Origin: Arthrobacter sp. APC 3897 | GTDB lineage: Bacteria; Actinomycetota; Actinomycetes; Actinomycetales; Micrococcaceae | Assembly: GCF_030407495.1 (NCBI RefSeq) | Contig: NZ_JASDDG010000018.1 | Span: forward strand, 1-64,000 | Reading direction: 5' to 3' | Length of the DNA: 64,000 bases | In this document: piece by piece, positions 7,144 to 23,387 of the stretch | Layout: every line of letters begins with the position of its first letter | Position numbering within the stretch: position 1 is the stretch's first letter | The notes under the pieces: generated by a model | The model's input: the letters and a program-made list of their open reading frames with translations, nothing else | What the model was told of the DNA's origin: nothing | Database searches by the model: none | Translations under genes and position numbers: made by a program

Positions 7144-8416
7144 TCCCGGGGAGGCTGCCACCGAAGTCTCCACGGTCGCCGTCGTCGGCCTTGGCTATAT
7201 TGGCCTGCCCACCGCCGCCATCCTGGCCGGCAAGGGACTGCACGTCATCGGTGTGGACGTAAATCCGGACACCGTTCAGGCCGTCAACGAAGGCCGGGTG
7301 CCCTTCATCGAACCCGATCTGGGTGTTCATGTGGCCGGCGCAGTGAGCCAGGGGCATCTCACGGCGCAGGAAAGCATGCCGGAGGCGGACGCCTACATCG
7401 TGGCTGTGCCCACTCCGTTCCGGGATGACAAGACTGCCGATCTGGTCTACGTGGAGCAGGCCGCCCGCAGCATTGCCGCCAGGATCCGTCCCGGCAACCT
7501 GGTGATCCTCGAGTCCACCTCGCCTCCCGGCACCACGCGCCGGATGGCGGACGTCATTCTTGACCTGCGTCCCGACCTGTCCGCGGCGGCCGGCAGCGAC
7601 AGGGACCGGGTCCTGTTTGCGCACTGTCCCGAGCGTGTGCTGCCCGGAAGAATTATGATCGAGCTGGTCACCAATGACCGCATCATCGGCGGACTGACAC
7701 TGGAGGCTGCCACAGCCGCCGCCGGCCTGTACAGCACGTTCTGCCAGGGGCGTATCCACCTCACTGACGCTGCCACGGCTGAAATGGCCAAGCTGGTGGA
7801 AAACGCCTACCGGGACGTGAACATCGCGTTCGCGAACGAACTCTCCGTCATCAGCGGCAACCTCGGCATTGACGTGTGGAATCTGATTGAGCTGGCCAAT
7901 TACCACCCGCGCGTCAATATCCTCCAGCCCGGTCCCGGAGTAGGGGGCCACTGCATTGCCGTGGATCCCTGGTTCATCGTGTCCGCGGACCCGGAGAATT
8001 CCCGCCTGATCCGCACAGCGCGCGAGGTCAACGACGCAAAGCCCGGCCATGTCATTGCCGAGGTAAAGACGGCGGTTGAGGGGATTGAAGCTCCCGTCAT
8101 TGCAGCCCTGGGACTGGCTTTCAAAGCGAATATTGATGACACCCGCGAATCCCCGGCAGTGGAGATTGTCCGCCGGCTGGCACTGGAAAACCCCAGGGCG
8201 CGGATCCTGGTGGGACGGTCATTCCCGGGAGCTAAACTTCCCGATGAACTGTCCCCGCTGCCGAACGTATCGTCCGTCGTCACCAATGACGCCGTAGCCG
8301 CCGCTGACGCCGTCGTCCTCCTGGTGGACCACGATGCCTTCCGGGAAATCCGCCCCGAACAGCTGGCCGGAAAGGCCGTCATCGATACCAGGGGATTTTG
8401 GCGCACCACGGCATGA
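7124..8416 (+). CDS. wecC: UDP-N-acetyl-D-mannosamine dehydrogenase (nucleotide sugar dehydrogenase)
   Basis: This 430-residue protein oxidises a UDP-hexosamine C6 twice with NAD+. The best fit is UDP-ManNAc to UDP-ManNAcA. Visible features are the N-terminal Rossmann VAVVGLGYIGLPTAAILAGK, the ESTSPPGTT loop, the KLVENAYRDVNIAFANEL dimerisation helix, the catalytic cysteine in GVGGHCIAVDPWF, and the C-terminal LAFKANIDDTRESPA domain. These match the WecC/Cap5O branch better than UDP-glucose dehydrogenase. I prefer ATG 7124 because GGGGGAC precedes it; ATG 7112 is the alternative. The partner epimerase WecB lies at 23412-24593 on the other strand, which supports ManNAcA as the product. Confidence 0.88.
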   Translation: MNTQTFNPGEAATEVSTVAVVGLGYIGLPTAAILAGKGLHVIGVDVNPDTVQAVNEGRVPFIEPDLGVHVAGAVSQGHLTAQESMPEADAYIVAVPTPFRDDKTADLVYVEQAARSIAARIRPGNLVILESTSPPGTTRRMADVILDLRPDLSAAAGSDRDRVLFAHCPERVLPGRIMIELVTNDRIIGGLTLEAATAAAGLYSTFCQGRIHLTDAATAEMAKLVENAYRDVNIAFANELSVISGNLGIDVWNLIELANYHPRVNILQPGPGVGGHCIAVDPWFIVSADPENSRLIRTAREVNDAKPGHVIAEVKTAVEGIEAPVIAALGLAFKANIDDTRESPAVEIVRRLALENPRARILVGRSFPGAKLPDELSPLPNVSSVVTNDAVAAADAVVLLVDHDAFREIRPEQLAGKAVIDTRGFWRTTA

Positions 8417-11400
8417 AGCGGCTCGCCAAACGGTTCGCGGCCGCCGGTGCCGGTCTGCACCCGGCGCTGAAGGCTCGCCTGCGGCGCACCGTGGGGCGCG
8501 GCCGGCCGGACCACGGAGAGCTGAGCGTGGTGGTGCCCATGCACAATGTGGCTCCGTACCTGGAGCGTTGCCTCACCAGCCTGGTGAACCAGACTTACGC
8601 CAACCTGGACATCATTGTGGTGGATGACGGATCAACCGACAGCTCAGCAGCAGCTGCCGGCCGGTATGCCGCGTATGATCCGCGGATCCGCCTGATTAAG
8701 CTTCCCCACGGCGGCAACGGGCGCGCCCGCAATGCCGGCATCGCTGCCGCACGCGGAGAGTTCCTCACCTTTGCCGACGCCGACGACGTTGTTCCCGGCA
8801 ACGCCTACGAAGTCATGATGGCGTCTCTGGCGGCGTCCGGGTCCGATTTCTGCGTGGGATCCTACGGACGGATCCGAGGCAGCCGGAAGATCCCGGTCCG
8901 GTTGGCCGGGAGCATCCACGCACGGATGAGGACCGGCGTTACGGTCAGCGATATTCCGGAGGTTATCGACAACGTCTTCCTCTGGAACAAGGTCTTCCGC
9001 CGGGACTTCTGGGACCGTCAGGTAGGTCCCATGCCGGAGAACATCCGGTATGAGGACCAGGAAACCACTGCCCGGGCCTATCTGCGCTCGCAATCCTTCG
9101 ATGTGCTTCCGGATGTGGTCTACTGGTGGCGGATCCGGGAGGACGGCTCTTCCATCACCCAGGCCAAACATCTGATCGAAGATCTGCGGGACCGGCTCTC
9201 CGTAGCCGGTGACGTCACCGCCCTCTGTGAGGCGGAGGCGCCGGCACCGGTTGCCGCAGGCTGGTTCCGGCGGCTGCTGGGCGCGGACCTCCTTCCCTAT
9301 ATTGAACAAATTCCGGACGCCGGCGAGGAGTATTGGCAGCTGCTTAGACGGGGTGTCCGGCAGCTCTGCGCAGCCGGGCAGCCGCATCTGCGGGACATTG
9401 ATCCGCAGGTACGCGTGCTGCTGCACCTGACGGCGGAGGGAAGGCGTGAGGATATCCGGCGAGCCCTGGTGGACCGGATCAACAACGGAACCGCCAGCCC
9501 GCTCGTCTTTGACCGGGGACGGATCTTTGCTGAGCCGCCGCTCCTGCAGGTACTCGCTGAACCCGTGGACCGGGAGCTCCTGGCAGTGGACGCCCGGCAC
9601 CTTGACCTGGTGGCTGCGCTTGCACCACCCGTGACGGAGCACGACGGCGGTGCCACCCTCAGGGGATACGCCTACCTGCGCAACGTGGACCTGCGCCGCA
9701 CTACAGTGCAGCTTTCCGTGCGCGTCTGCGGGGACGAGGGTTTCCAGCCGCTGCCGCTACAGCCCGGCACGGACCCCGGCCTGGATACTGCGTCGGGGGA
9801 CCGGAACTGCAGTTATGCGGATTCCGCCTTTTCCCTGCAGATAAATGCGCCGCTGCCAGTGGAGCTGACGGTGTGTGCGGAAGTGGACGGACACCGGACC
9901 GAACGGACGGTAGCCCTGCCCGTTCCCGCCGGACCGGGCGCCAAGTCCCGCGGCAACGGTCCCGCAGTGACAGCCTTCGCCGCTGAAGCCGGCGGCGACG
10001 CCATAGACATAGTGGTGGACGGCGCTCCTGCAGCGGCAGCCTTTGCCCTGGTCACCGCGCGTTTCCGGATTCCGGCAGGAGACGCCGAGCCGCTGCCCGA
10101 CGGCGGGACGCGGCTCCGGTTCCCCCTGCCCGTCACACGGTGGGGCAGGGAACTGCCGGCCCCGCCGTCGGACTCTTACACCCTGCGCTGGAACGCCGGG
10201 GGAGGCCGGCCGGACCCGTCGGATCCCACCGTTCCAGTTGCCGAAGACACGGCCGCATCCTTCCGGTCCAGCCTGTTGTCCGCGGCGCGGGTCTGCGGCC
10301 TGCGGACAGCGGCAGGAGCCATGGCCGTCAGCATCGCTGCTCCGCTGGCCGCGGATGAAGCGGGAACCTTTCACCAGTACCGGCTGCGGCGCGAGGTCTT
10401 CGGCACGCACCCTGCTCCGGAACTCACGCCCGGAGTTTTCTTTGAAAGCTTTGGCGGAAAAAGCTGCACGGACAGTCCCCGGGCCATTTCCGATTACCTT
10501 GCCGCCAATGGTTTTGATGAGCCTCTGTATTGGTCCGTCGCTGACCGTTCCGTCCCCGTGCCGGACTATGCGGTGCCCCTGCTGCAGGGATCCGCTCAGT
10601 GGTACCGGAAACTGGCCTCCACCCGGCGGCTGGTCAACAACAACAACTTCCCTTGGTATTTCCGTAAATCGCCGGGCCAGTTCTACCTGCAGACCTGGCA
10701 CGGAACGCCGCTGAAAAAAATTGGCCTGGACGTGCCGCAGCGGGTGCTCTCCCTGTCCTACCGGGACCTGATGGCCCGGGAAGCAAAGTGGTGGGACCTG
10801 CTGCTGGCACAGAATGACTTTGCCGCCGGAGTGCTTCCGACGGCGCTGGGCTATAAGGGGGAAGTGCTGACTGCCGGATACCCCCGCAACGATGCACTGC
10901 TGCATCCACAGGCCGCGGACGGCGGGAACAGGGTGCGGGCCCTGCTCGCAATTCCGGCGGACCAGAAGGTGCTGCTCTACGCTCCCACCTGGCGCGACAG
11001 TGTCCGGGACGGCGCCGGCCGGTCGGACTGGAACGGATTCCTCGACGTAGCGGAAGCCAGCCGCCGGTTGGGGCCGGGATGGACCTTCCTGATCCGCGGC
11101 CACCACAACGTTGCCGGCCAGCGCCGGATCGAGAACCACCCTGCGGCGATCGATGTGACCGACTATCCGGACATCAATGATCTGTATCTGGTCTCGGATG
11201 TCCTGGTCACTGACTACTCCTCGGCAATCTTCGACTATGCAGTGCTCCGGAAGCCAATGGTCCTGCTGGTTCCGGACCTGGCTGAGTACCGCAGGTCGCG
11301 CGGACTGTATCCGGAGCCGTCCGATGTCTTTGGGCTGCTGCCGACAGCGTCCGCTACTGATGAACTCATCTCTGCACTGACACGGAGTGCAGCCGCCGGT

Positions 11401-11529
11401 GAACCGGCTTGGAGCCGCATCGCGGACCGTTATGCTTCCGCTGAACAAGGCACGGCGGCAGCGGCGTCCGTTGCACTGCTGCCAGCCTCCGCTCATTTCC
11501 AGAACCCCACAGGAGTCCAACGTGGCTAA
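8413..11529 (+). CDS. GT2 glycosyltransferase fused to CDP-glycerol glycerophosphotransferase (TagF-like)
   Basis: This 1038-residue protein starts at ATG 8413, overlapping the dehydrogenase stop as ATGA. Residues 35-250 form a GT2 domain (LSVVVPMHNVAPYLERCL, VVDDGSTDSS, TFADADD). Residues about 410-660 are beta-rich and resemble no family I know. They contain a segment shared with two other proteins of this locus (GYAYLRNVDLRR through CSYADSAF). Residues about 675-1010 are a CDP-glycerol:poly(glycerophosphate) transferase-type domain: VNNNNFPWYF, FYLQTWHGTPLKKIG, LLYAPTWRDS and DYSSAIFDYAV, which include the family's catalytic His regions. It likely adds a sugar and an alditol phosphate to a growing polymer. 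The real alditol is unknown. Confidence 0.88.
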   Translation: MKRLAKRFAAAGAGLHPALKARLRRTVGRGRPDHGELSVVVPMHNVAPYLERCLTSLVNQTYANLDIIVVDDGSTDSSAAAAGRYAAYDPRIRLIKLPHGGNGRARNAGIAAARGEFLTFADADDVVPGNAYEVMMASLAASGSDFCVGSYGRIRGSRKIPVRLAGSIHARMRTGVTVSDIPEVIDNVFLWNKVFRRDFWDRQVGPMPENIRYEDQETTARAYLRSQSFDVLPDVVYWWRIREDGSSITQAKHLIEDLRDRLSVAGDVTALCEAEAPAPVAAGWFRRLLGADLLPYIEQIPDAGEEYWQLLRRGVRQLCAAGQPHLRDIDPQVRVLLHLTAEGRREDIRRALVDRINNGTASPLVFDRGRIFAEPPLLQVLAEPVDRELLAVDARHLDLVAALAPPVTEHDGGATLRGYAYLRNVDLRRTTVQLSVRVCGDEGFQPLPLQPGTDPGLDTASGDRNCSYADSAFSLQINAPLPVELTVCAEVDGHRTERTVALPVPAGPGAKSRGNGPAVTAFAAEAGGDAIDIVVDGAPAAAAFALVTARFRIPAGDAEPLPDGGTRLRFPLPVTRWGRELPAPPSDSYTLRWNAGGGRPDPSDPTVPVAEDTAASFRSSLLSAARVCGLRTAAGAMAVSIAAPLAADEAGTFHQYRLRREVFGTHPAPELTPGVFFESFGGKSCTDSPRAISDYLAANGFDEPLYWSVADRSVPVPDYAVPLLQGSAQWYRKLASTRRLVNNNNFPWYFRKSPGQFYLQTWHGTPLKKIGLDVPQRVLSLSYRDLMAREAKWWDLLLAQNDFAAGVLPTALGYKGEVLTAGYPRNDALLHPQAADGGNRVRALLAIPADQKVLLYAPTWRDSVRDGAGRSDWNGFLDVAEASRRLGPGWTFLIRGHHNVAGQRRIENHPAAIDVTDYPDINDLYLVSDVLVTDYSSAIFDYAVLRKPMVLLVPDLAEYRRSRGLYPEPSDVFGLLPTASATDELISALTRSAAAGEPAWSRIADRYASAEQGTAAAASVALLPASAHFQNPTGVQRG

Positions 11530-14275
11530 GGGCCAATTTTCCCTCGTAGTGGCGCTGTATAACGTGGCCGACTATGTTCCCACCTTCCTCAAGTCTCTGG
11601 AGGCCCAGACCTACCCGTTGGCGGACCTGGACATAGTTGTGATCGACGACGGCTCCACCGACGAATCTGCGGATGTGGTGTCTGAATGGGCCCGCGGCCG
11701 TTCCAACGTCCGCCTGGTCCGCAAAGAAAACGGCGGCCCGGCCTCGGCCCGCAATGTGGGACTGGACCTGGTCCGGAATGCCTGGGTGACCTTCTGCGAC
11801 CCGGACGACGCCTTCCACCCGCACTATTTTGACCGGATTGCCGCCTTCATCAGCCGTGATGTCCAGCAGTCCGCACAAATGCTCACCGGCCGGCTCGTGC
11901 AGTTCAACGACTCTTCACTGCGGACGTCGCAGGGCCACCTGCTGAACCGCAAGTTCCGCCAGGGGGACCTGCTGGTTGATCTGGACCTGAACCCGGAGTA
12001 CTTCCACATGCACGGGCCCACCACCTTCCTCCGCAGAGAGATGCTGGAGGCGCATCAGCTCCGCTTTGACGAACGCATCCGCCCCAAATTCGAGGACGCG
12101 AATCTCATCGGCCGCTACCTCGCGGCGGCCGGCCGTCCGGTAGTAGGCCTTGTTGCCTCGGCCAGCTACTACTACCGCCGGCAACGCCGCGGCACAGCGT
12201 CACTGGTGCAGGGGACATGGGCCGACCCCCGTGCCTACAGCGACCTGCCGCAGTACGGCTGGCTGGGCATGCTCGAGGGCGTGCGTTCCAGTGCCGGAGG
12301 GGTTCCGCACTGGGCACAGTACATGGTGCTTTATGACCTGGTCTGGCTCTACATTGATGACAAGCGCATGCACAGCGACACCGGCTCCGCCACGCCCGAG
12401 CAGCAGGCCCGCATGCATGAGCTGCTGGAAAGCATCATCTCCCTGATTGACGAAGACGTCATCAACACGTTCAGCGTGGTCAGCCAGGGGTGGCTTTTCC
12501 ACAGTATTCTCCGCACCTACTACAAAGGCATCCGCGACGCTGATCCTCTCGTGGTGGAGGGGACAACGGATCCGGTGCAGCAGGTCACCACCTACAACTA
12601 CCTCTACCAGGGAAACGTGCCGCAGGAAGAGTACCTGGTGGACGGCGTTTCCCGGGTTCCGGCGGCCGCAAAGGTGCTCGAACACCGGGTGCTGGGCAGA
12701 GTCCTCATCCGTGAGCGGATCCTTGTTCTGCCGGCAGGGGAGAGCGCAGAGATTGTGCTTGACGGCGTCACAGCGGTTCCCTCCAAGGACCGCGGAGTTC
12801 CGCTGCAGCCCGGACGGCGGCCTACGCCGGCTCCCTACCTTCAACTGGCTGCGGGGCGGGCAAGGAGCCGTCTGACTAAGACGGTAGGTGGAAGCCGTAT
12901 ATCCCGGCGCCTGGCGCGTGCCCGTGCGGGACTCACCGTCCGGCAGGTACTGTCCGGACAATCCCGTTCACGGACGGCCGCGTCGGCAATAAAGCGGGTG
13001 ATCCGCCGGCAACTCAAGTCTGCCGCAGCCAAGAAACGGGCTGCTGCGGACCGTGCGCTCATCCGCCGGGCATCCAGCGAACCTGTGCGCTCGCGGTACA
13101 AGGATGCCTGGCTGCTGATGGACCGGATTGACCGGGCCGATGACAATGCCGAGCACCTCTACCGGTACCTCATGAAGCACCGCCCCGACATCAATATCCA
13201 CTTCGTGATTGAAAAGGACTGTCCCGACTGGCACCGGCTGCAGGGCGACGGCTTCAAGCTGGTCCCCTACGGCTCGGATGAATCGGTGCTGCTGGTACTG
13301 AACGCCGCCTATAAGCTCTCGTCTCACGCTAACTGGAACGTCGAATACCCGGTGAGCCGACGCCGTTACGGTGCGGGCAGCGCCAAATTCGTCTACCTTC
13401 AGCACGGAGTCATTAAAGACGACATGTCGCGTTGGATCAACGGCAAGAACATTGCAGCCATGGTCACAACCACCCGTGGCGAGCACGAGTCCATTGCCGG
13501 TGACAACAGCGTTTACCGGCTGTCCAACCATCAGGCCAAACTCGTTGGGCTGCCTCGTTACGATGCCCTGCGTAAGGCAGCGCTTGCCTCACCGGTGGAG
13601 GAGCGCCGCCGGCTACTCATCGCACCCACCTGGCGTCAGTACGTGAAAAAGGTCATCGAAGTGTGCCCCACGCCTGCCGAGGCGGCCAGGGCATTCGAAG
13701 AAACCGACTTCGGTAGCACATGGATGGCGCTGCTGCGCTCTGCGGAGCTGAAAGAACTGAGCGTGAACGAGGACATGGACGTGGTCTTCATGCCCCACCC
13801 GGAGTTCGAATTTGTGGTGCCCTATCTCGACCTTCCCGAGTTTGTACGCCCTGCGCGGTACCGGGACGTGAGCGTCCAAGCCGAGCTGACCAAAGCCCAC
13901 ACCATGATTACCGACCATTCCTCCATTGCCTTTGATGCCGCGTATGCCGGCAGCAACCTCATCTACCTGCAGTTCGACGGCGACGAAATTTTCCGCGGCA
14001 AGCATGTGTACCGCAAGGGATACTTCGACTACGCCCGGCACGGTTTTGGTCCGGTGACCGAGAACGTGGACAGCGCTATTAAAGAACTCGAACGCATCGT
14101 TTGTAGGGGGCTGGCCCGCGAAGGGAAGTATGAGGAGCGGGTACGGGAAACGTTCCCCTTCTGGGATTCACGCTCCTGCGAACGGATCACTGCAGCAGTG
14201 GAGAACCTGGCACGTCCCTGGGATCAGCAGCTGCCACTTGATGCGCCTCTCAATACGCCAGGCAACGGGGAATGA
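11522..14275 (+). CDS. GT2 glycosyltransferase fused to a divergent CDP-glycerol glycerophosphotransferase domain
   Basis: I chose GTG 11522 (917 residues) because AGGAG at 11511-11515 precedes it and the GT2 domain begins at once (FSLVVALYNVADYVPTFLKS, VIDDGSTDES, CDPDDAF). Residues about 440-570 form a basic Arg/Lys/Ala-rich linker without the beta modules of its neighbours. The glycerophosphotransferase-like half starts near residue 570. Its first His motif reads YLQHGVIKDDMSRW instead of TWHGTPLK, followed by LLIAPTWRQY and ITDHSSIAFDAAYAG. This marks a different subfamily of the Glyphos_transf fold. It overlaps the preceding gene by eight bases and the next by four, so one transcript is likely. 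Confidence 0.86.
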   Translation: MAKGQFSLVVALYNVADYVPTFLKSLEAQTYPLADLDIVVIDDGSTDESADVVSEWARGRSNVRLVRKENGGPASARNVGLDLVRNAWVTFCDPDDAFHPHYFDRIAAFISRDVQQSAQMLTGRLVQFNDSSLRTSQGHLLNRKFRQGDLLVDLDLNPEYFHMHGPTTFLRREMLEAHQLRFDERIRPKFEDANLIGRYLAAAGRPVVGLVASASYYYRRQRRGTASLVQGTWADPRAYSDLPQYGWLGMLEGVRSSAGGVPHWAQYMVLYDLVWLYIDDKRMHSDTGSATPEQQARMHELLESIISLIDEDVINTFSVVSQGWLFHSILRTYYKGIRDADPLVVEGTTDPVQQVTTYNYLYQGNVPQEEYLVDGVSRVPAAAKVLEHRVLGRVLIRERILVLPAGESAEIVLDGVTAVPSKDRGVPLQPGRRPTPAPYLQLAAGRARSRLTKTVGGSRISRRLARARAGLTVRQVLSGQSRSRTAASAIKRVIRRQLKSAAAKKRAAADRALIRRASSEPVRSRYKDAWLLMDRIDRADDNAEHLYRYLMKHRPDINIHFVIEKDCPDWHRLQGDGFKLVPYGSDESVLLVLNAAYKLSSHANWNVEYPVSRRRYGAGSAKFVYLQHGVIKDDMSRWINGKNIAAMVTTTRGEHESIAGDNSVYRLSNHQAKLVGLPRYDALRKAALASPVEERRRLLIAPTWRQYVKKVIEVCPTPAEAARAFEETDFGSTWMALLRSAELKELSVNEDMDVVFMPHPEFEFVVPYLDLPEFVRPARYRDVSVQAELTKAHTMITDHSSIAFDAAYAGSNLIYLQFDGDEIFRGKHVYRKGYFDYARHGFGPVTENVDSAIKELERIVCRGLAREGKYEERVRETFPFWDSRSCERITAAVENLARPWDQQLPLDAPLNTPGNGE

Positions 14276-17244
14276 AGGCCGCACAGTGGCTGAGGCGGGG
14301 AATGAAGCAGCTGAAGCGAAGAGCCGATCCTGATCCCGTGTCCCGCCAACCGGCGGATGCGGCCGGCTGGCTTGCACCGGAAGTGCCGGCCGCTCCAGCA
14401 CCGGCTGCTGCTGTCACAGGTCTGCGTGAATGGTTGGATCAGGTGTCCGCTGCCGCCGCCGTCGTCGTCTGCAGCGAAGCTCCGGAAGCGGAGATGCGCA
14501 ACTGGTACGTGCAGCTGCTGGGAGAACTCAGGGACCACCTAACGTATGTGCAGCACAGCGGACCGGAGTACTTCGAGGTTCTTCAGGAGCTTGTTGCCGG
14601 CGTGCTGCAGGCTCCGGCCGGGCGTCATGCCCTGTTTACGTTGCCGGATGTTCATCAACGGGTGCTGCTTTGGCTGACGGCACATAACCGGCGCAACGAT
14701 GTGCTGCTGGTACTGGCGGACCTGCAGGACAATGGCCGCAGCTACCGCCTGTCCACCGCACACGGCGCAGAAACCATCAGGGACTTCAGTGCGGAGCTGT
14801 CATACCTCCTGCTGCTCAGCAGCCACGTTGACGCCGAACTGCTCCGGCTAACCCAGGCGGACTTGGTGCTGACAACCCGACTAACGGGATTCGCCTGGAC
14901 CGAAGACGGAATGCTCAAGCTCGGGGGATGGGCCTATCTTCCCGGAGTCGACCCTGCAGAGTGCGCTTTGGAGGTTCGGTTTCAAGCCACCGGTTCGGAT
15001 AAGAGCACCACGCTCGCCGTGATCCGGGGGCACGATCCACGGATCGATGCGACGGCATCGGATCGCTGGTTGTCCTATGCCGGTGCAGCTTTCACGGCAA
15101 TAGTGGATCCCGGAGCGCTGCCGCAGCTGGACCTCCAATCCGGCACAGTCTCGGAGTGGGTGCTGGAAGTGACGTTGAGGTTCGGCGGGATCTCGGTGTG
15201 CGGCCCGTTTCGGGACCGGGATCCGGATACCGTGCCGCGGCGTCTTCCGATCGGACCGCTGACCGATGAGCGCATTCGTGTCATTGGCTTGATGGACGGC
15301 ACCGCGGGCCTCAGGCTCAGGCGGGTGCGCTATTCCTGCAGCGCTGTGTCCGTTGCAATGGACGGGAGCACGGCGGGTATCAGCTTCAACCCTGATGGCG
15401 GTGTCACGCCGTCGGCTTTGCATCTTGAAGCGCCCGGCGAACCTCCGTTGGAGTTCCGCCCAACGGATTCCGGCGGAACCTCGTTTGCCGTGGACGTGAG
15501 GTCAAGTGGCTCCACCGCCAGCAACCAAAACCAACGCTGGACGGTCAAAGCTGTTCTGCCCAACGGCCGCAGCGAACCGGTGGGCTGGGGCGGCTCAGGC
15601 GCCGAGTTGGCAGCGGCGTCGGAGCCCTCAGCGGTGCTGCGAGCCGAATGCACGGGGTACGGGTACCTGCAGCTGGTGATGCAACCGGGGCGGGTGACCC
15701 TGGACAGCGCGGAGATCAGCCCGGACGGTGCCACGCTGGTCATGGAAGGAAGGGCGGGTCAATTGCCGGGCTCACCGGATCCAGTGCTCCCGGAGATGCT
15801 GTTGCTTACTGCCCGCAATGAACTGCGCCCGCTGTCCACCATCTGGCTGGATGGCACTCATCGTTTCCGCACGGAATTCCCGCTCCAGCAGAACAAATGG
15901 GGACACGGGAACCGTGCGCCGGAGGCCGGGCATTACCGCGTGCTGCACGCTGTGACCGACGATGCCGGGCGCGTCCGCAATGCCAGAGTTCCTGCACTGG
16001 GACAGCTGCTCCGGCAACTTCCTCTGCGAGCTGAGCGGACATTGGCAGCCCTGGAGCTGGTGGGGGAGGGAAACGAGCAGGATCTGGTACTGCGGGTTTC
16101 CGCTCCGCGCCCTTCGGCTGACCGCACCGCCCTGGGCCGTGGCCGATTGATCGCGGATTATTGCGGGACGACGGAAGCGGTGGACCCCGGTGCCGTGCTC
16201 TTTGAGACTTTTGACGGCAAGTCCTGCTCGGACAGCGGCCGTGCCATCAGCGATGTACTAGGCGCTCACCGGCCGGATCTGCAGAGGTACTGGACCGTGG
16301 CGGACTTTTCGGTGCAGGTTCCGCCGAACTGTACGCCGGTGCTGCGCGAGAGCCCGGAGTGGTTCCGCCTTCTCGCCACCGCCGGCTATCTCGTCAACAA
16401 CAACAACTTTCCGCACTATTTCCGTAAACGCCCGGAACAGTTCTATCTGCAGACCTGGCACGGAACACCTCTCAAGCGCATCGGTTGCGATACACCCGTG
16501 GCCGGAACCACCGCCTCCTACCGCGCGCTGATGCAACGCGAGGCGGCGGCCTGGGACATGCTCCTGGCACAGAATGAGTTCGCTGCCGGCACCTTGGCTG
16601 CCGCCTTCGGATACCGGGGGCGGACCGCCGTTCTCGGGTATCCCCGCAATGATGCGCTGGCCGCTGGGCCAGCTGCCGGGCGCCGGGAAGAGACTCGGCG
16701 CCGCCTCGGAATCAACCCGGGTCAGAAGGTGCTTCTCTACATGCCCACGTGGCGGGACAGCGCAGCCGCCGCAAGCCGGTACCTTGATTTCAACAAGGCC
16801 GCAAGGGAACTTGGTCCGGACTATGTGAATCTTTACCGGGGTCATCACAAGATCGCTGGCCGCCGCAAAACAACGGGTCAGGAGCACTACTTGGACGTCA
16901 CTGCCTATCCCGAGGTAAACGATCTTTATCTGGCGGCGGACCTGCTGGTCACCGACTACTCCTCGGCCATGTTCGATTTCTGTGTGACCGGCAAACCGAT
17001 GTACTTTCTGACTCCGGACCTCGAGCATTACCGGGACACCGAACGAGGTTTCTATTTCGATTTTGAGGCGGGGGCACCTGGACCCATTGCGAGTAAGACT
17101 GAGGATTTGCTGGCGGCAATCCTCTCAGAGGATGCGGCCGCCGAACAACACTCCCTTCGCTACAAGGTGTTTCTGGAGAGGTTTGCGCCGGACGACGATG
17201 GCGCTGCCGCGGGCAGGATTGTGCGGGCAGTTTGGGGGTCATAA
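14272..17244 (+). CDS. CDP-glycerol glycerophosphotransferase-family protein with orphan N-terminal and beta-rich modules
   Basis: This 990-residue protein starts with ATGA on the stop of the previous gene. There is no GT2 domain. Residues 1-200 are helical and unrecognised. Residues about 205-320 repeat the module seen in the 8413 and 19668 proteins (LGGWAYLPGVDPAECALEV, then DRWLSYAGAAF). A second beta-rich segment near 500-570 contains FPLQQNKWGHGNRAPEAGHY. The transferase domain spans about 640-980: LFETFDGKSCSDS, VNNNNFPHYF, FYLQTWHGTPLKRIG, LLYMPTWRDS and DYSSAMFDFCVTGKPMYF. It probably extends or primes an alditol-phosphate polymer at the inner membrane face. Base composition drops just after its stop. 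Confidence 0.86.
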   Translation: MKAAQWLRRGMKQLKRRADPDPVSRQPADAAGWLAPEVPAAPAPAAAVTGLREWLDQVSAAAAVVVCSEAPEAEMRNWYVQLLGELRDHLTYVQHSGPEYFEVLQELVAGVLQAPAGRHALFTLPDVHQRVLLWLTAHNRRNDVLLVLADLQDNGRSYRLSTAHGAETIRDFSAELSYLLLLSSHVDAELLRLTQADLVLTTRLTGFAWTEDGMLKLGGWAYLPGVDPAECALEVRFQATGSDKSTTLAVIRGHDPRIDATASDRWLSYAGAAFTAIVDPGALPQLDLQSGTVSEWVLEVTLRFGGISVCGPFRDRDPDTVPRRLPIGPLTDERIRVIGLMDGTAGLRLRRVRYSCSAVSVAMDGSTAGISFNPDGGVTPSALHLEAPGEPPLEFRPTDSGGTSFAVDVRSSGSTASNQNQRWTVKAVLPNGRSEPVGWGGSGAELAAASEPSAVLRAECTGYGYLQLVMQPGRVTLDSAEISPDGATLVMEGRAGQLPGSPDPVLPEMLLLTARNELRPLSTIWLDGTHRFRTEFPLQQNKWGHGNRAPEAGHYRVLHAVTDDAGRVRNARVPALGQLLRQLPLRAERTLAALELVGEGNEQDLVLRVSAPRPSADRTALGRGRLIADYCGTTEAVDPGAVLFETFDGKSCSDSGRAISDVLGAHRPDLQRYWTVADFSVQVPPNCTPVLRESPEWFRLLATAGYLVNNNNFPHYFRKRPEQFYLQTWHGTPLKRIGCDTPVAGTTASYRALMQREAAAWDMLLAQNEFAAGTLAAAFGYRGRTAVLGYPRNDALAAGPAAGRREETRRRLGINPGQKVLLYMPTWRDSAAAASRYLDFNKAARELGPDYVNLYRGHHKIAGRRKTTGQEHYLDVTAYPEVNDLYLAADLLVTDYSSAMFDFCVTGKPMYFLTPDLEHYRDTERGFYFDFEAGAPGPIASKTEDLLAAILSEDAAAEQHSLRYKVFLERFAPDDDGAAAGRIVRAVWGS

Positions 17245-17426
17245 ACAAAAAGCGGAGACTCGCTGAGACCCAAAGACAAACTATATGTTCGAAGGTGTAC
17301 TGCAGTTCACCTTTTGTTCCTCTGCGCGTACTCTGGCATGGGGGCGCGAAGATTTGTGTACGTGGCAATGACGAGCTGTCGATATTCGAGAGTCCCATTT
17401 CAACACTCCGACGAACAGGACAACAG

Positions 17427-18152: not shown

Positions 18153-18238
18153 GCCTAATGTGTTCCACGAAGTACGCCGGGGGCCAAGCAGGGCGGTCAG
18201 TCCAGAGCTGTGGCCTCTAAACACTATGGAGATACTCA

Positions 18239-19366
18239 TTGCATGAAACTGTCAAGCTAGTCGTATACCCGTCACCCGTTGTGCTGCCAAGTAACGCGAT
18301 CCAACGATTCCCGCCGCGGCCGAAGAGTCAGCGACAGGATAGTTACGACGAACTTTTCGATGCAAACACTTTGTTTTATGATTCCGTACAAGTGGACGGT
18401 GGAATTAGCCTTATAGGTCCGCCGTTGCTGAACCTTGAGACAGTACTTTCTCAGGGTGTCGTCACAGACCGTAGGGGAAGACCTTTACGGACAGTTCACA
18501 ACTCGCTGGACCGCACATCGATAATTCGCGTTGACGGAGATGAAAACGTCGATGTTGTGAATATTTGTTCTTCTGAGATGGCTTTGTCGGCTATTGCATC
18601 ACCCAACTTCCGCGACCTGTTTGAAGGAACGAATACCCTCGTCACCAAATCCAAAGACAATCGTCTAACGTGGATTTCTGATTGGGTCAAGTTTCATGTT
18701 GCTGAACAGAAGATTGACGCAGTACTTATCTACGACAATAACTCGAGCCAGTATGGTCCGGAGGACGTTCTCGAGGCCATATCTGTTCCTGGAATCAAAG
18801 TTGCCGTAGTGGTTCACTGGCCGTTTAAGTTTGGACCCCAAGGCGGAAGCTGGAACGGGCTAAACGGGGCACCCTGGGATTCAGATTTTTGTGAATATGG
18901 CATCATGGAGCACGCGCGTCATCGGTTCCTTGGGGGCGCGGCCGGCGTATTGAATGTTGATATTGACGAGTTGGTTATCACGAAGGGTGATAACACGGTT
19001 TTCGATGTTCTCACCGATCTTGAATGCGGGGCTATCTCGTTTGCGGGACGATGGATTGAGACAGCCGGACGCCGTGGCGCCAGTGAGTCGTTCGCTGATT
19101 ACTCGTACTATGACAAGCGCCGTGCACCAACGACCATAAAGTGGGCTATCTCGCCAACGAAGATACCCGAAGCCACGCAATGGAAGACGCACATGATTGC
19201 CGGTGTGACAATGGTTCCTTCCCCGACAACTATGCATCGACACTTCATGGGGATCAGTTCGAATTGGAAATGGCAGCGGTCGACTGACCGTGACCTTGCG
19301 GCCCATCATGAACGGGATCATGAATTGTTGACCGCCTTTGGGCGGGCATTTGCCATTGGGGTCTGA
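18239..19366 (+). CDS. GT92/DUF23-like glycosyltransferase
   Basis: This 375-residue protein probably starts at TTG 18239. The tempting ATG at 18243 is in another frame and stops after five codons. A central segment, KDNRLTWISDWVKFHVAEQK followed by DAVLIYDNNSS, is the typical opening of GT92/Glyco_tranf_2_4 proteins. VLNVDIDELVI carries a DXD-type metal site. The C-terminal KTHMIAGV and HRHFMGISSNWKWQR segments complete the family look. It is probably a cytosolic sugar transferase for the same envelope polymer. It lies in the lower-G+C block after an 86-base gap, and its 3' end faces the minus-strand polymerase gene. Confidence 0.7.
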   Translation: MHETVKLVVYPSPVVLPSNAIQRFPPRPKSQRQDSYDELFDANTLFYDSVQVDGGISLIGPPLLNLETVLSQGVVTDRRGRPLRTVHNSLDRTSIIRVDGDENVDVVNICSSEMALSAIASPNFRDLFEGTNTLVTKSKDNRLTWISDWVKFHVAEQKIDAVLIYDNNSSQYGPEDVLEAISVPGIKVAVVVHWPFKFGPQGGSWNGLNGAPWDSDFCEYGIMEHARHRFLGGAAGVLNVDIDELVITKGDNTVFDVLTDLECGAISFAGRWIETAGRRGASESFADYSYYDKRRAPTTIKWAISPTKIPEATQWKTHMIAGVTMVPSPTTMHRHFMGISSNWKWQRSTDRDLAAHHERDHELLTAFGRAFAIGV

Positions 19367-19667
19367 AAGAGTCGCTGCGCGGGGTGGGGGACCACTCCTA
19401 GAAACCTGCATGGCGCCTTTAGTAGACCTGCGCCGAATTGGCATACAGCCACAGGTGCTCGGAAACAGCGTATAAATCCGCGCTGATTATCATTCGACAC
19501 GGGGTGGGCCCGTGCTGCGCCCGCTTGCTAATCGGCGAAGTTACGGCTGCCCCAGCATGGAGTGAAACCGGGGCAGTTGGTTGCAGCTTTCGTTCTTAGA
19601 CAGCAGATGGGGGGAGTCTCGTTCTGAGACTCCCCCATAGATATTTGGTTTGCGCCCCTAGGAGACG
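19367..19667. other. Intergenic spacer between convergent genes
   Basis: These 301 bases separate the stop of the GT92-like gene from the stop of the minus-strand glycerophosphotransferase gene. I see no credible reading frame. They contain a weak 7-bp stem (CTGCCCC 19547-19553 with GGGGCAG 19570-19576) and a strong hairpin at 19610-19636, listed separately. Confidence 0.6.
19610..19636. terminator. Bidirectional hairpin terminator
   Basis: A perfect 11-bp stem, GGGGGAGTCTC (19610-19620) with GAGACTCCCCC (19626-19636), has a 5-base loop. It lies between two convergent genes and could stop transcription from both sides. There is no long T-run on either side, so its strength is uncertain. Confidence 0.6.
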
Positions 19668-22600
19668 TCAGAGATGTGATGCGCCCCAAATATGGTCGTA
19701 AACACGCTGTGCGGCCTTCCCATCATCGTGGGATGCGTACAACTTTCTGAAGCTCTCGTATTTATCCGCATAAGCCGTGGTGGGACCCTGAAGTATCGAT
19801 TCAACCAGGGACTCCGTGCTGGCAACGATGGGACCCGGACTAGTGGATTCAAAGTCGAAATAGAATCCTCTGACCGAATCGCGGTATCTCTCCAAATCAG
19901 GTGCGAGGAAGTACATGGGCTTCCCGGTGACACAGTAGTCGAACATGACCGATGAATAGTCGGTGACTAAAAGATCGGAAGCTGTGTACAGCTCATTTAT
20001 GTCTTCATAATCTGTCACGTCGATGCAACTTAGATTAGTAAGTGCCGGCACTTGACCAGCAACATTGCTGTGTCCCCTTACCAGAAAAACAAAATTGGCT
20101 CCCAGGCGGTCGTTTGCTTTCTGGAAATCCAGGAAGGAACTCATCTGATATCGATTGCCCTGGCCTCTGAGGTAATCCCGCCAGGTCGGCGCATAAAGAA
20201 CAACAGTCTTGTCTTCATCGATGCCTAAGCGACTCCGGACGGCAGCACGTAGAGGGTAATGGTCATCCTGAACCAAAGTGTCATTACGTGGATAGCCTTC
20301 AGTGACAACGCGACAACTAGTGCCGAAGGCTCGGGGAAGAACTTCGGCAGAGAAGTCGTTCTGTGCAAGCAGGAAGTCCCAGTATCGGGCTTCACGTTGC
20401 ATCAAATTTACATAAGGCAACGATAGATGAGTCGACGGTATGTCGTTTCCAATACGCTTCAGTGGTGTTCCGTGCCAAGTCTGAACGTATTTTTGGCCTG
20501 CGCGCTTTCGGTAATAGAAAGGAAAGTTGTTGTTGTTTACGAGATATTCGACGGTATGAAGTTTTCTGTACCACTCCTCCGAGTACCGGATGAGCGGGAC
20601 TGCCCCGGTAGGAACATGCACCGAAAGGTCAACTACTGACCAATATCTGGTTCGGGGATCATCCCGGCGATCCATTTCATTGAATAGTGCGAGGCCTGAG
20701 TCTGTGACTGACTTGCCACCGAAGGACTCAAATAAAACGGCCCCGGGCTCTAGGGGGAGTTCGGAAAATTCAGGAATCCGGTCCTGAAGAGTTCTCTGCC
20801 TGTACTTACCTCTCTCAGAGGTATCCAGAGGTGCCAACACCTGCAACGCGAGGGCGCCAGCCCTTGGCGTACGACCAAGCTTCAACCGTGTGGTTTGCGT
20901 CGTTAGTTCCTGAGGAAGGCGAAGCTCAAGGTCCTTGGTAACTGGTATCCAATACTCATGACTTTCTCCACCCAACGATTCTGTGGCACACCGGACCGTA
21001 TAGGTGCCGGACGTTAGGACCTCACGAGAAGAGCCATGCTTTTCACGATTGAGCACAAAAGTCGTAGTCATTGCGCCGGATCCGTGGAGGACTTCGGTTT
21101 TGGACGGCCTTACCCTGTGTGCGTCGCTAGCTAGTACCAATGGAGGCAAGGTCAGGTAGGGGGGAGTGCCGACGACACACTTGGCACGGTACTCCACCTT
21201 CAGCTCATTTGTGGCGGCGTCGTAAGAGGCGTCATCTATAACTAGTCTCCACCGCTGCTGCGTCAGCTCGAGGTACCCGTATCCCGACACCGTAGCGCGA
21301 AGATTATTGATGTCCTCGGAAGTTCTGTTCAGAGACTCAATATCTGTGGGCCAAGCTATATGGTGCAGCTTTCCGTCGCTGCTGATGACCCTCACCTTAT
21401 ACATGTAGTTCGCGGTGGGCGGCTGGTCCTCATTCAGGGTGGGTACATCAATGATGAACTTGGCCGCTTCATCGGCCGGCCCCGGAATCTTCCGGCCGTC
21501 GAGTTCGATACCGAGCTTCGGACACTCAATCCTTATGCCCACGAGATCTTCGCCTGGTGCCCCGGTGACGCTCAAATTCACCGTCTGATCTTCAACGCTA
21601 AGTTCCGTTACAAAACGACGCTGCTTCACGTCAAAGAATGACAGGCCGTATTGTTTGGAGAATCGAGTGATGAGTCTACGGTTTCCGGCGGCGTCAAGAA
21701 GGGGCATGCTCGCAGTCGTCCCACCGGCATCTTTCGTCAGAAAATTTGACGTGATATTTTCGTTGTCCAAACTGAGCGACAGCGACAGCGCCCACTCGGA
21801 GCCATCGTGCTGTGGTCCGGTCGGCAAAGAATCCAAGTCGACCTCAGCCACAAAGCCAGTGCCCGCATAACTAACCCAAGGGTCACCGTCGACTGCGTCA
21901 ACGTCGAAGTCTGAACGTTTTATCGGACCTAGTTCGATTCGCTGGGAAGAGAGAATGTCAATGAGTTCAACACGAGGTACACCGGGGTAGTATTTCGGGC
22001 TCAGACCTTCAATAAATGCGTAACCGGAAATTTCCATGGACCGTGGACCTGTTTTCCGCATTGCGGTTAGGCGGCTCTTAACGCTGAGGTTCTTTGGGTC
22101 GACACGCATCAAACCGGGTTCCGGAATGTAATCTATATCCTCAAGATATGCAGGTTTCGCAGTCAGGCCGGAATGATCCTTCTCAATTTCGAAGGAGTGT
22201 CCGTACTCAGCCAAGTGCAGTACTACCTTTTCTGCATTTTTACGATCCGCAGACCCAATGAGACGTACCAGTATCTTGTGATGTGGGGACATCTCATTGA
22301 GTACGGCGTCATCCAAGTCAGCCGCCAGCCGTTCAACCCCTCGTTGGAGCTCTTTCCAATACTTGTCATCAACCCGAGGAATAAGGCTGTAGTACTGACC
22401 AAGATCTGGTCCAAGGGTCCGTGCAAGCCACGCGATCCTGGTGGATTCTTTACCAGCTTCTTGGAGAAGTTTCGCGACGCAATCTATTGCCGCCAGTCGA
22501 TCTCTCACATCAACATATCGTTCCTTCTGCTGTGTGATCGACGAGTTATCGCTGCGGATCCGCCAGTCATAGACTACTTCTTTTACAACATCGAATTTAG

Positions 22601-23387
22601 TCGAGAGTAGATAGGCTTTGGCGGTAGTCTCCTGGTCTTCGTAGAGAACACCCTCTGGGAACTGTCCGATGTTTAGATCCCAAAACGTCTTCCGGAATAG
22701 TTTGTTACAGGCAAATACGTCCTGCAATATTCCGGGACAGTCTTCGACACTGATTCCATGTTGGGGTTCTGCATGGAGCCTTTCCGCCCATGCAGGAACA
22801 CGCCTGACGCCGTTCGTTAGACGCCTGATTGTTCCCACCACAAAATCGGACCCGGTGTCGGTAAGTGTACGAATCATCTGGGTATAGGCATCACGCGGAA
22901 TGATGTCATCGGAATCCACAAATGATAGGAAATCACCAGTTGACTCCTTGATTCCCGTATTCCGTGCCGCGCCTAGTCCGGCGTTGTCTTTATTTATCAA
23001 TCGTATACGTGTGTCGGAGGACGCCAAAGCCTCTGCTATAGCAACGCTTGAATCGGTGGAACCATCGTTTATCAGAAGTATTTCAAGATGTGGATATGAC
23101 TGTGAAGTAATACTTTCGACACACTCGGCAAGATAATCTTCGACATTATAAACAGGAATTATGACTGATATGGTTCCAAGATGCTGTGGTGCGGGTTTTG
23201 ACTTCGAATCCAACACATGCAGGTTGTCTTCTTTGATAGCGACCTTTGGGGGCAGCATTAGCTCTTTTTTTGTCTTAGCTGCGGAGATATTGGCTGCCGA
23301 AAGTAGGGGGCGGACCTGGTTTCGTACAGATGGTGGAACTCGTCGCCACACAGCTCTTAGGTATGGAGATCTTACGTGCGGTGACAT
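19668..23387 (-). CDS. GT2 glycosyltransferase fused to CDP-glycerol glycerophosphotransferase (largest of the set)
   Basis: This 1239-residue minus-strand protein contains a GT2 domain at about 73-300 (ISVIIPVYNVEDYLAECV, LINDGSTDSS, SFVDSDD). Near residue 450 is the shared beta module (GYAFIEGLSPKYYPG, then DPWVSYAGTGF), followed by more beta-rich sequence. The transferase domain covers about 880-1230: LFESFGGKSVTDSG, VNNNNFPFYY, QTWHGTPLKRIG, LYAPTWRDYL and DYSSVMFDYCVTGKPMYF. It is a close structural paralogue of the 8413 protein but is encoded in lower-G+C DNA and on the opposite strand. The wecB gene ends 24 bases upstream, so the two probably form one transcript. Confidence 0.86.
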   Translation of the reverse strand: MSPHVRSPYLRAVWRRVPPSVRNQVRPLLSAANISAAKTKKELMLPPKVAIKEDNLHVLDSKSKPAPQHLGTISVIIPVYNVEDYLAECVESITSQSYPHLEILLINDGSTDSSVAIAEALASSDTRIRLINKDNAGLGAARNTGIKESTGDFLSFVDSDDIIPRDAYTQMIRTLTDTGSDFVVGTIRRLTNGVRRVPAWAERLHAEPQHGISVEDCPGILQDVFACNKLFRKTFWDLNIGQFPEGVLYEDQETTAKAYLLSTKFDVVKEVVYDWRIRSDNSSITQQKERYVDVRDRLAAIDCVAKLLQEAGKESTRIAWLARTLGPDLGQYYSLIPRVDDKYWKELQRGVERLAADLDDAVLNEMSPHHKILVRLIGSADRKNAEKVVLHLAEYGHSFEIEKDHSGLTAKPAYLEDIDYIPEPGLMRVDPKNLSVKSRLTAMRKTGPRSMEISGYAFIEGLSPKYYPGVPRVELIDILSSQRIELGPIKRSDFDVDAVDGDPWVSYAGTGFVAEVDLDSLPTGPQHDGSEWALSLSLSLDNENITSNFLTKDAGGTTASMPLLDAAGNRRLITRFSKQYGLSFFDVKQRRFVTELSVEDQTVNLSVTGAPGEDLVGIRIECPKLGIELDGRKIPGPADEAAKFIIDVPTLNEDQPPTANYMYKVRVISSDGKLHHIAWPTDIESLNRTSEDINNLRATVSGYGYLELTQQRWRLVIDDASYDAATNELKVEYRAKCVVGTPPYLTLPPLVLASDAHRVRPSKTEVLHGSGAMTTTFVLNREKHGSSREVLTSGTYTVRCATESLGGESHEYWIPVTKDLELRLPQELTTQTTRLKLGRTPRAGALALQVLAPLDTSERGKYRQRTLQDRIPEFSELPLEPGAVLFESFGGKSVTDSGLALFNEMDRRDDPRTRYWSVVDLSVHVPTGAVPLIRYSEEWYRKLHTVEYLVNNNNFPFYYRKRAGQKYVQTWHGTPLKRIGNDIPSTHLSLPYVNLMQREARYWDFLLAQNDFSAEVLPRAFGTSCRVVTEGYPRNDTLVQDDHYPLRAAVRSRLGIDEDKTVVLYAPTWRDYLRGQGNRYQMSSFLDFQKANDRLGANFVFLVRGHSNVAGQVPALTNLSCIDVTDYEDINELYTASDLLVTDYSSVMFDYCVTGKPMYFLAPDLERYRDSVRGFYFDFESTSPGPIVASTESLVESILQGPTTAYADKYESFRKLYASHDDGKAAQRVYDHIWGASHL

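What the first reader, a model, noticed from the sequence alone, without database searches (positions are those of the whole stretch)
8413..23387. Orphan beta-rich modules shared by three glycerophosphotransferase-family proteins
The proteins at 8413-11529, 14272-17244 and 19668-23387 share a segment outside any family I recognise. Its pattern is G-W/Y-A-Y/F, then about 40-60 residues, then D-R/P, W/N, SYA, and A/G-F: GYAYLRNVDL with CSYADSAF, GWAYLPGVDP with WLSYAGAAF, and GYAFIEGLSP with WVSYAGTGF. A second shared segment reads FP or F, then W/H-G, then S/A-G-X-Y-X-V/L-R. Both lie before the TWHGTPLK transferase domain. They may be substrate-length or acceptor-recognition domains, and they make this locus differ from classic TagF systems.
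Basis: partly seen in the sequence, partly recalled or inferred. Interest (0 to 1): 0.72.

Follow-up and report, generated by a model that had tools for sequence, protein, structure and literature searches.

The report
TarS-type beta modules in TagF polymerases
Three cell-wall polymer-making enzymes in this actinobacterium share a real but unnamed middle section, which appears to be a distant form of the platform that a known wall-decorating enzyme (TarS) uses to form trimers and hold on to its polymer.

Summary
The shared segment is real (BLASTP of the block alone: P2-P3 2e-31, P1-P2 2e-9; P1-P3 only 0.10, but P1 is found by profiles built without it, mA 1e-12, mC 5e-7). Pfam and NCBIfam give no consistent match. 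It is not an orphan. It is mA plus two mutually homologous domains mB and mC (P0001 lacks one), placed after a helical bundle as in TarS: GT-A, bundle, C1, C2. Profiles align the block co-linearly with the C-termini of 37 actinobacterial TarS-type transferases (hhalign 96.6%, E 6e-10, score 80.4, best of 20 shuffles 15.6; without the bridging protein L094 95.6%, 70.7 against 14.9). Some of those C-termini match Pfam TarS_C1 (6 of 37, best E 7e-5). The block also occurs without TagF (L094, L190). It stays when the GT-A domain decays: 14 of 43 fused proteins lack the metal motif, and the P0002 group has no GT-A domain. Most likely it is an oligomerisation and processivity platform of a TagF polymerase that is often bifunctional. 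The fold was not modelled; the function is inferred.

The parts
8413..11529 (+). P0001: GT2 - helical bundle - mA - mC-type module - Glyphos_transf (TagF domain), 1038 aa
8512..9174 (+). P0001 GT-A (GT2) domain with DADD and YEDQ motifs
9202..9561 (+). P0001 helical bundle (TarS_linker counterpart)
9568..9945 (+). P0001 mA module (TarS C1 counterpart), holds GYAYLRNVDL...CSYADSAF
9955..10311 (+). P0001 mC-type module (TarS C2 counterpart), holds FPLPVTRWG
10429..11484 (+). P0001 TagF (Glyphos_transf) domain, QTWHGTPLK and RGHHN
14272..17244 (+). P0002: helical bundle - mA - mB - mC - TagF domain, no GT2, 990 aa
14443..14823 (+). P0002 helical bundle (TarS_linker counterpart)
14830..15246 (+). 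P0002 mA module, GWAYLPGVDP...WLSYAGAAF
15247..15627 (+). P0002 mB module
15634..16071 (+). P0002 mC module, FPLQQNKWG, homologous to mB
16189..17235 (+). P0002 TagF domain, QTWHGTPLK and RGHHK
19668..23387 (-). P0003: GT2 - helical bundle - mA - mB - mC - TagF domain, 1239 aa, in a low-GC island
22518..23180 (-). P0003 GT-A (GT2) domain with DSDD and YEDQ motifs; aligns to TarS 3-270 together with part of the helical bundle
22128..22490 (-). P0003 helical bundle
21705..22121 (-). P0003 mA module, GYAFIEGLSP...WVSYAGTGF
21312..21704 (-). P0003 mB module
20865..21305 (-). P0003 mC module, FVLNREKHG
19686..20744 (-). P0003 TagF domain, QTWHGTPLK and RGHSN
3438..5235 (+). ABC-2 permease (3438-4349) and ABC ATPase (4288-5235), the TagGH-type exporter expected for a polymer made in the cytoplasm
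   Evidence: TagGH label recalled
11387..14275 (+). P0004: GT2 + divergent Glyphos_transf, without a detected copy of the shared modules

Best explanation
The shared segment is a divergent form of the C-terminal platform of TarS-type wall-teichoic-acid glycosyltransferases: mA corresponds to TarS C1, mB to C2, and mC is a second copy of the mB/C2-type domain. It sits between the helical bundle that follows a GT-A (GT2) domain and a C-terminal TagF (GT-B) polyol-phosphate transferase domain. Shown by sequence: the three-module anatomy, profile homology to TarS-type C-termini, intact catalytic motifs of the three TagF domains, intact GT-A motifs in P0001 and P0003, and retention of the block in proteins whose GT-A domain is eroded or missing. 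Inferred: the block folds as stacked Ig-like domains, makes the polymerase oligomeric (trimeric in TarS) and keeps the growing chain close to the TagF site, and to the GT-A site where that is intact, so that polymerisation is processive. P0001 and P0003 would be bifunctional enzymes that alternate sugar and polyol-phosphate, or polymerise and glycosylate; P0002 would be a polymerase only. The polymer would be exported by the ABC transporter encoded upstream.
For: Whole block (17 fused proteins, P0001 not among them, plus L094) against the C-termini of 37 stand-alone TarS-type transferases: hhalign 96.6%, E 6e-10, 235 columns in order, score 80.4, best of 20 column shuffles 15.6; without L094 95.6%, 1.3e-8, 70.7 against 14.9. 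Expanded mA profile alone: 94.3%, 9.6e-8, score 54.6, reversed 12.3, best of 30 shuffles 15.1; without L094 92.1%, 49.9 against 14.4. Of those 37 C-termini 6 match Pfam TarS_C1 at E up to 10, best 6.8e-5. In L190 TarS_C1 (548-690, E 0.0016, below its cut-off) and the expanded mA profile (533-663, 2e-11 in a small set of frames) fall on the same stretch, soon after an above-cut-off TarS_linker. L094 is GT2 + TarS_linker (6e-12) + mA + a C2-like domain without TagF, and its GT2-linker part aligns to TarS 3-321. Fused protein L105 matches TarS_linker at the cut-off (25.3 bits; 27.7 bits; cut-off 27). mB and mC are homologous: score 37.6 against best of 30 shuffles 11.6. The TarS platform trimerises, and intrinsic processivity was 2400 with it and 133 without (PMC5156392, passages). 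In the Gram-negative GT-A/TagF polymerase Cps1B a TPR domain mediates oligomerisation (PMC5974469, passages). The block is kept while the GT-A domain is eroded or missing.
Against: No window protein matches TarS_C1, TarS_linker or, over the block, any PDB chain above chance. Weaker parts and subsets: mA without Streptomyces-type members 54.6%; 29 of the 37 C-termini against the expanded mA profile 43.5%, the other 8 91.5% but over 48 columns only; helical bundle against linker 67.3%; post-mA region alone 38.0% and out of register; mC alone 4.9%. Whole block without the Streptomyces-type proteins 82.3%, 49.6 against 17.5; 29 C-termini against the block without L094 85.5% over 74 columns only. 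mA is net acidic (median -6, 45 of 46 at or below 0), whereas basic grooves are described on TarS C1/C2. In a quick GT2 tree the fused proteins do not fall inside the TarS-type group. For L111 the GT-A domain is not lost but encoded by the next gene upstream. There is no structure model and no assay.
Confidence: 0.6

Rival explanations
1. The block is mainly an acceptor- or polymer-binding module, that positions the chain end in the TagF and GT-A sites; oligomerisation is secondary.
For: CBM-like fold and suggested polyRboP binding role in TarS; in the 46-row alignment the one invariant column and 4 of the 11 columns at 90% or more lie in mA (F102; G47, A49, D92, Y97).
Against: mA is net acidic; in TarS removal of the domain left kcat/Km very similar (PMC5156392, passages).
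Confidence: 0.25
2. The block is a passive spacer that sets the distance between the GT-A and TagF active sites, or a chain-length ruler.
For: It lies between the two catalytic domains and varies in module number (two in P0001, three in P0002 and P0003, a second block before GT2 in L005 and L008).
Against: It persists with an eroded GT-A domain (ten Arthrobacter-type proteins, L028-L030, L137) or none in the protein (P0002 group, L111, L115, L116), and occurs with no TagF domain to be spaced from (L094, L190).
Confidence: 0.1
3. A new, unrelated beta-sandwich family; the match to TarS-type C-termini is convergence between Ig-like sequences.
For: No direct Pfam or PDB hit for window proteins; a designed Ig protein and antibody chains are among the weak PDB hits of the TarS-type C-termini; several component comparisons are modest.
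Against: Same domain order and similar spacing after the helical bundle as in TarS, co-linear two-domain alignment far above shuffles, and the bridging protein L190.
Confidence: 0.12

Closest known systems
TarS, S. aureus wall teichoic acid beta-GlcNAc transferase (PDB 5TZ8; Pfam TarS_linker PF22181, TarS_C1 PF18674)
   Same: GT-A domain with DxDD and ED motifs, helical bundle, then two stacked beta domains; P0003 GT2 plus part of the bundle aligns to TarS 3-270.
   Different: The window proteins add a C-terminal TagF domain and, in P0002 and P0003, a third beta domain; P0002 has no GT-A; the TarS_C1 and TarS_linker models do not reach them directly.
TagF, S. epidermidis glycerol-phosphate polymerase (PDB 3L7I)
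   Same: C-terminal Glyphos_transf domain (P0003 859-1233 to TagF 332-714, E 7.9e-81); a GT2-like N-terminal stretch is detectable in TagF by sequence (L094 GT2 to TagF 3-221, E 2.1e-9).
   Different: TagF has about 110-120 residues where these proteins have the helical bundle plus about 250-420 residues of beta modules.
Gram-negative TagF-like capsule polymerases, GT-A/TagF type such as Cps1B (PMC5974469)
   Same: GT-A and TagF domains in one chain, plus a domain not needed for activity that oligomerises the enzyme (passages).
   Different: Their extra domain is TPR; here it is a TarS-type beta block between the two catalytic domains.
UtrC, TarS-like transferase of Streptomyces griseus (PMC13274773)
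   Same: Actinobacterial protein with a GT domain distantly resembling TarS, acting on WTA, with a TagF encoded in the same region (passages).
   Different: Described there as a separate protein from TagF; whether its C-terminus belongs to the group compared here was not tested.

Membership tests
TarS-type glycosyltransferases | GT-A domain with DxDD metal motif and ED base | tested here: met
   P0001 DADD/YEDQ and P0003 DSDD/YEDQ; P0002 lacks the domain, so it is not met there.
TarS-type glycosyltransferases | TarS_linker helical bundle (PF22181) above cut-off | tested here: not met
   No match in P0001-P0003 at E up to 1; profile comparison with 37 linkers 67.3%, score 30.5 against shuffle best 14.7; relatives L094 well above and L105 at the cut-off.
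TarS-type glycosyltransferases | TarS_C1 (PF18674) above cut-off | tested here: not met
   Not among the families matched by 46 block sequences at E up to 10; 0 of 396 genomes of the phylum, with no control genome ringing; remote homology by profiles only.
TarS-type glycosyltransferases | Trimer through C1/C2 | not testable with these tools
   Structure prediction switched off.
TagF / Glyphos_transf (PF04464) | PF04464 above cut-off with both catalytic histidines | tested here: met
   248, 312 and 326 bits against 22.1; TWHGTPLK and RGH motifs in all three (that these hold the two catalytic histidines is recalled for TagF; two catalytic histidines of TagF-like domains were read in passages).
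TarF equivalog (NCBIfam NF041712) | Score above the equivalog cut-off of 550 bits | tested here: not met
   211.8, 210.6 and 249.1 bits.
TagF-like GT-A/TagF polymerases | GT-A and TagF domains with intact active-site motifs in one chain | tested here: met
   By motifs in P0001 and P0003, not in P0002.
TagF-like GT-A/TagF polymerases | Product is a poly(glycosylpolyol phosphate) or poly(oligosaccharide phosphate) | not testable with these tools
   Needs assay or wall chemistry.

The most novel reading that the evidence does not exclude
These are single-chain wall-teichoic-acid (type II) polymerases of actinobacteria, Gram-positive counterparts of the Gram-negative GT-A/TagF capsule polymerases, built on a TarS-type trimeric platform. 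The platform serves the TagF polymerase itself, which is why the glycosyltransferase active site could decay more than once while the platform was kept.
Probability: 0.35. Interest if true: 0.6.

Novelty: new variant of a known kind. Interest (0 to 1): 0.42.

Why it matters
[quoted passage not shown] These proteins are concrete candidates, and the pairing seen in many genus members (a P0001-type protein with intact GT-A motifs beside a second block-bearing protein) makes it testable. They also link two textbook enzymes, TarS and TagF, in one protein, and suggest a beta-sandwich platform doing the job that a TPR domain does in a Gram-negative relative. Pfam could gain a model for the divergent C1/C2 domains. 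Against high interest: every part is of a known kind, and the function is inferred.

Tried and rejected
Direct profile searches of the block against PDB gave only chance-level hits and the TagF edge. Scans of Pfam and NCBIfam with 46 block sequences gave scattered single hits, best E 0.0054 (one member, DUF7013) and 0.021; P0002 itself has a chance-level GspH match in the block (E 0.43). A search for TarS_C1 in 396 genomes gave none, with no control ringing. A first profile comparison took antisense frames of the transferases by mistake and showed no similarity; it was discarded and repeated on the frames that hold the GT2 domain. The idea that the fused GT2 came from a TarS-type GT2 was not supported by a quick tree. 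In one search the ED motif was read one residue off; one search is the corrected table. PDB entry 8BZ4 could not be traced to a paper in the library. On checking, BLASTP of the P0001 and P0003 blocks alone was not significant (0.10); the wider fragments held helical-bundle and TagF residues as well; settles P0001 by profile. The same check showed that L111's GT2 sits in a separate gene next door, so I no longer count L111 as a loss.

Rows dropped before counts. A2: of the 18 loci, L015 (partial), L016 (no block) and L018 (GT2 only, Bacteroidales) left out. A4: L015, L018, L032 and L048 (frames running off the locus) and copies of window or other rows (L019, L034, L040, L047) left out. Stand-alone C-termini: 37 of the 40 loci fetched (L178, L191 and L198 not used); these 40 were picked by me from the longer list. 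Upstream regions: the matches of 100 bits or more, not the weaker ones, plus block matches (G054, G035). The 68 Glyphos frames hold at least one gene twice, because L093 and L094 overlap. GT2 tree: envelopes under 150 residues or weaker than 1e-8 left out.
Full report
OBSERVATION. The window is the first 64 kb of a contig of a 3.79-Mb genome. Named genomes with relatives of P0003 are Micrococcaceae (Arthrobacter, Pseudarthrobacter, Paenarthrobacter) and Propionibacteriaceae (Microlunatus and a MAG), plus one GT2-only Bacteroidales match. The three proteins exist at the stated coordinates, the third on the minus strand, with all quoted motifs. BLASTP of the block alone gives P2-P3 2e-31, P1-P2 2e-9, P1-P3 0.10. 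Profiles made without P0001-type rows find mA (1.3e-12) and mC (4.5e-7) in P0001. All four PF04464 matches of the genome lie in this window; the fourth protein, P0004, has GT2 and a divergent Glyphos domain but no detected block.

ANATOMY. With profiles built from relatives, P0003 reads GT2 70-290, helical bundle 300-420, mA 423-561, mB 562-692, mC 695-841, TagF 882-1234. P0002 reads bundle 58-184, mA 187-325, mB 326-452, mC 455-600, TagF 640-988, without GT2. P0001 has GT2, bundle, mA, one mC-type module and TagF. mB and mC are homologous (hhalign 87.5%, score 37.6, best of 30 column shuffles 11.6); mA is not detectably related to either (1.2%). That the modules are beta-rich is inferred from the homology below, not modelled.

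NOT IN THE LIBRARIES. Pfam and NCBIfam give nothing above chance in the block for the window proteins and no consistent match for 46 homologous blocks. PDB sequences give nothing meaningful over the block.

DISTRIBUTION. In the close-relatives sample 15 of 59 genomes have a block match; 13 of these are among the 29 genomes of the genus, own genome included. In 396 genomes of the phylum, 8 have a match including the own genome, with only four candidates scored per genome, so this is a lower bound; 49 of 396 have a PF04464 match. From the stronger PF04464 matches I obtained 68 Glyphos frames (at least one counted twice), of which 8 carry mA and 3 more only mC. The short Streptomyces-type TagF proteins have GT2 and TagF without a detected block. 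L005:14240-19327 and L008:13301-18133 carry a second block in front of GT2.

WHAT IT IS. L094:2807-4999 has GT2, an above-cut-off TarS_linker (PF22181, 6e-12), mA and a further C2-like domain, and no TagF. Its GT2-linker part aligns to TarS 3-321. P0003's GT2 and part of its bundle align to TarS 3-270. TarS is catalytic domain 1-319, linker 320-352, C1 353-495 and C2 496-573, the latter two Ig-like, CBM-like and forming the trimer (PMC5156392, passages). TarS_linker proteins occur in 41 of 197 genomes of the class. From 40 fetched loci I took 37 C-termini. The whole block (17 fused proteins without P0001, plus L094) against these: 96.6%, E 6e-10, 235 columns in order, score 80.4, best of 20 shuffles 15.6; without L094 95.6%, 70.7 against 14.9; also without the Streptomyces-type proteins 82.3%, 49.6 against 17.5; only 29 C-termini 85.5% over 74 columns. 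Expanded mA alone: 94.3%, score 54.6, reversed 12.3, best of 30 shuffles 15.1. Of the 37 C-termini 6 match TarS_C1 at E up to 10, best 6.8e-5, and their profile aligns along residues 355-600 of a solved 624-residue glycosyltransferase (PDB 8BZ4, E 0.0057; a designed Ig protein scored better, E 0.002). In L190 TarS_C1 and mA hit the same stretch. The helical bundle matches the linker at 67.3%, score 30.5 against 14.7. I conclude that mA is C1-like and mB/mC are C2-like; the latter rests on the co-linear alignment and on L094's second domain (mC 83.4%, TarS-type C-termini 94.3%), because mC alone against the C-termini is weak (4.9%). The hhalign E-values are for single comparisons.

WHAT FOLLOWS FOR FUNCTION. 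The three TagF domains keep the TWHGTPLK and RGH motifs. Of 43 fused proteins with a GT2 domain, 29 keep DxDD and 27 keep both DxDD and ED. DxDD is eroded in ten Arthrobacter, Pseudarthrobacter and Paenarthrobacter proteins, in L028-L030 and in L137; the long forms of L005 and L008 keep DxDD but not ED. The P0002 group (six members: the window protein and L020-L024, open frames 986-1042) has no GT2 domain. L111, L115 and L116 have none in the protein either, but L111's next gene upstream is a separate GT2-TarS_linker protein; no GT2 frame was found in the stretches fetched around L115 and L116. In the trees of the TagF domain and of the block the ten-member group and the clade holding L028-L030 and the P0002 group are separate, so GT2 decay happened more than once. 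The two trees show the same main clades, while some long-branched rows (L129, L137, L138) move, so block and TagF were mostly inherited together. The block therefore does not exist only to serve sugar transfer. By analogy with TarS, where the platform trimerises and processivity was higher with it, and with Cps1B, where a TPR domain oligomerises a GT-A/TagF polymerase, an oligomerisation and processivity platform is the best reading. Binding of the polyanion by mA is not supported by its net acidic charge (median -6; 45 of 46 at or below zero).

HISTORY IN THIS GENOME. P0001 and P0002 have relatives in the genus at up to 79% and 78% identity in the TagF domain; P0003 belongs to no well-supported group and is at most 55% identical to any row (Microlunatus). 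P0003 and the two genes at 17232-19366 have GC 0.48-0.51 and GC3 0.46-0.53, against 0.60-0.70 and 0.71-0.84 for the other eleven genes measured. P0003 looks like a later acquisition (inference).

LITERATURE. A TarS-like separate transferase in Streptomyces is in print (UtrC, PMC13274773, passages). I found no paper that describes the block within TagF proteins; the searches were in an open-access library, listings seen, so this is weak evidence of absence.

Noticed in passing
17232-23387: Low-GC island (GC 0.48-0.51, GC3 0.46-0.53) holding a MobA-like NTP transferase, a protein of no Pfam family, and P0003; the other eleven genes measured have GC 0.60 or more.
   Followed up: partly
18239-19366: 375-aa reading frame with no Pfam match at E up to 1 and no NCBIfam match at E up to 0.1.
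   Followed up: no
fused proteins at about 7.3-11.7 kb of L004-L013 (10 proteins): GT2 domain kept in length but with the metal motif replaced by xAGD and the ED motif by WQ: a pseudo-glycosyltransferase domain conserved across a clade.
   Followed up: partly
L005:14240-19327, L008:13301-18133: 1695- and 1610-aa proteins with one beta block before GT2 and a second between GT2 and TagF.
   Followed up: partly
L111:380-3142 and L111:3319-4566, minus strand: Adjacent genes split the fused architecture: a 415-aa GT2-TarS_linker protein upstream of a block-TagF protein.
   Followed up: partly
11387-14275: P0004: GT2 plus a Glyphos domain with TDHSS and LQHGVIK, without the TWHGTPLK and RGH motifs; a different branch of PF04464 in the same cluster.
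   Followed up: no
window 23412-24593 and 7112-8416: UDP-GlcNAc 2-epimerase and a UDP-sugar dehydrogenase in the cluster, which suggests an acidic aminosugar such as ManNAcA in a wall polymer (inference).
   Followed up: no
PDB 3L7I (TagF) residues 3-221: By sequence the N-terminal part of S. epidermidis TagF matches a GT2 domain (E 2.1e-9 with L094), so TagF itself looks like a GT-A/GT-B two-domain protein.
   Followed up: no
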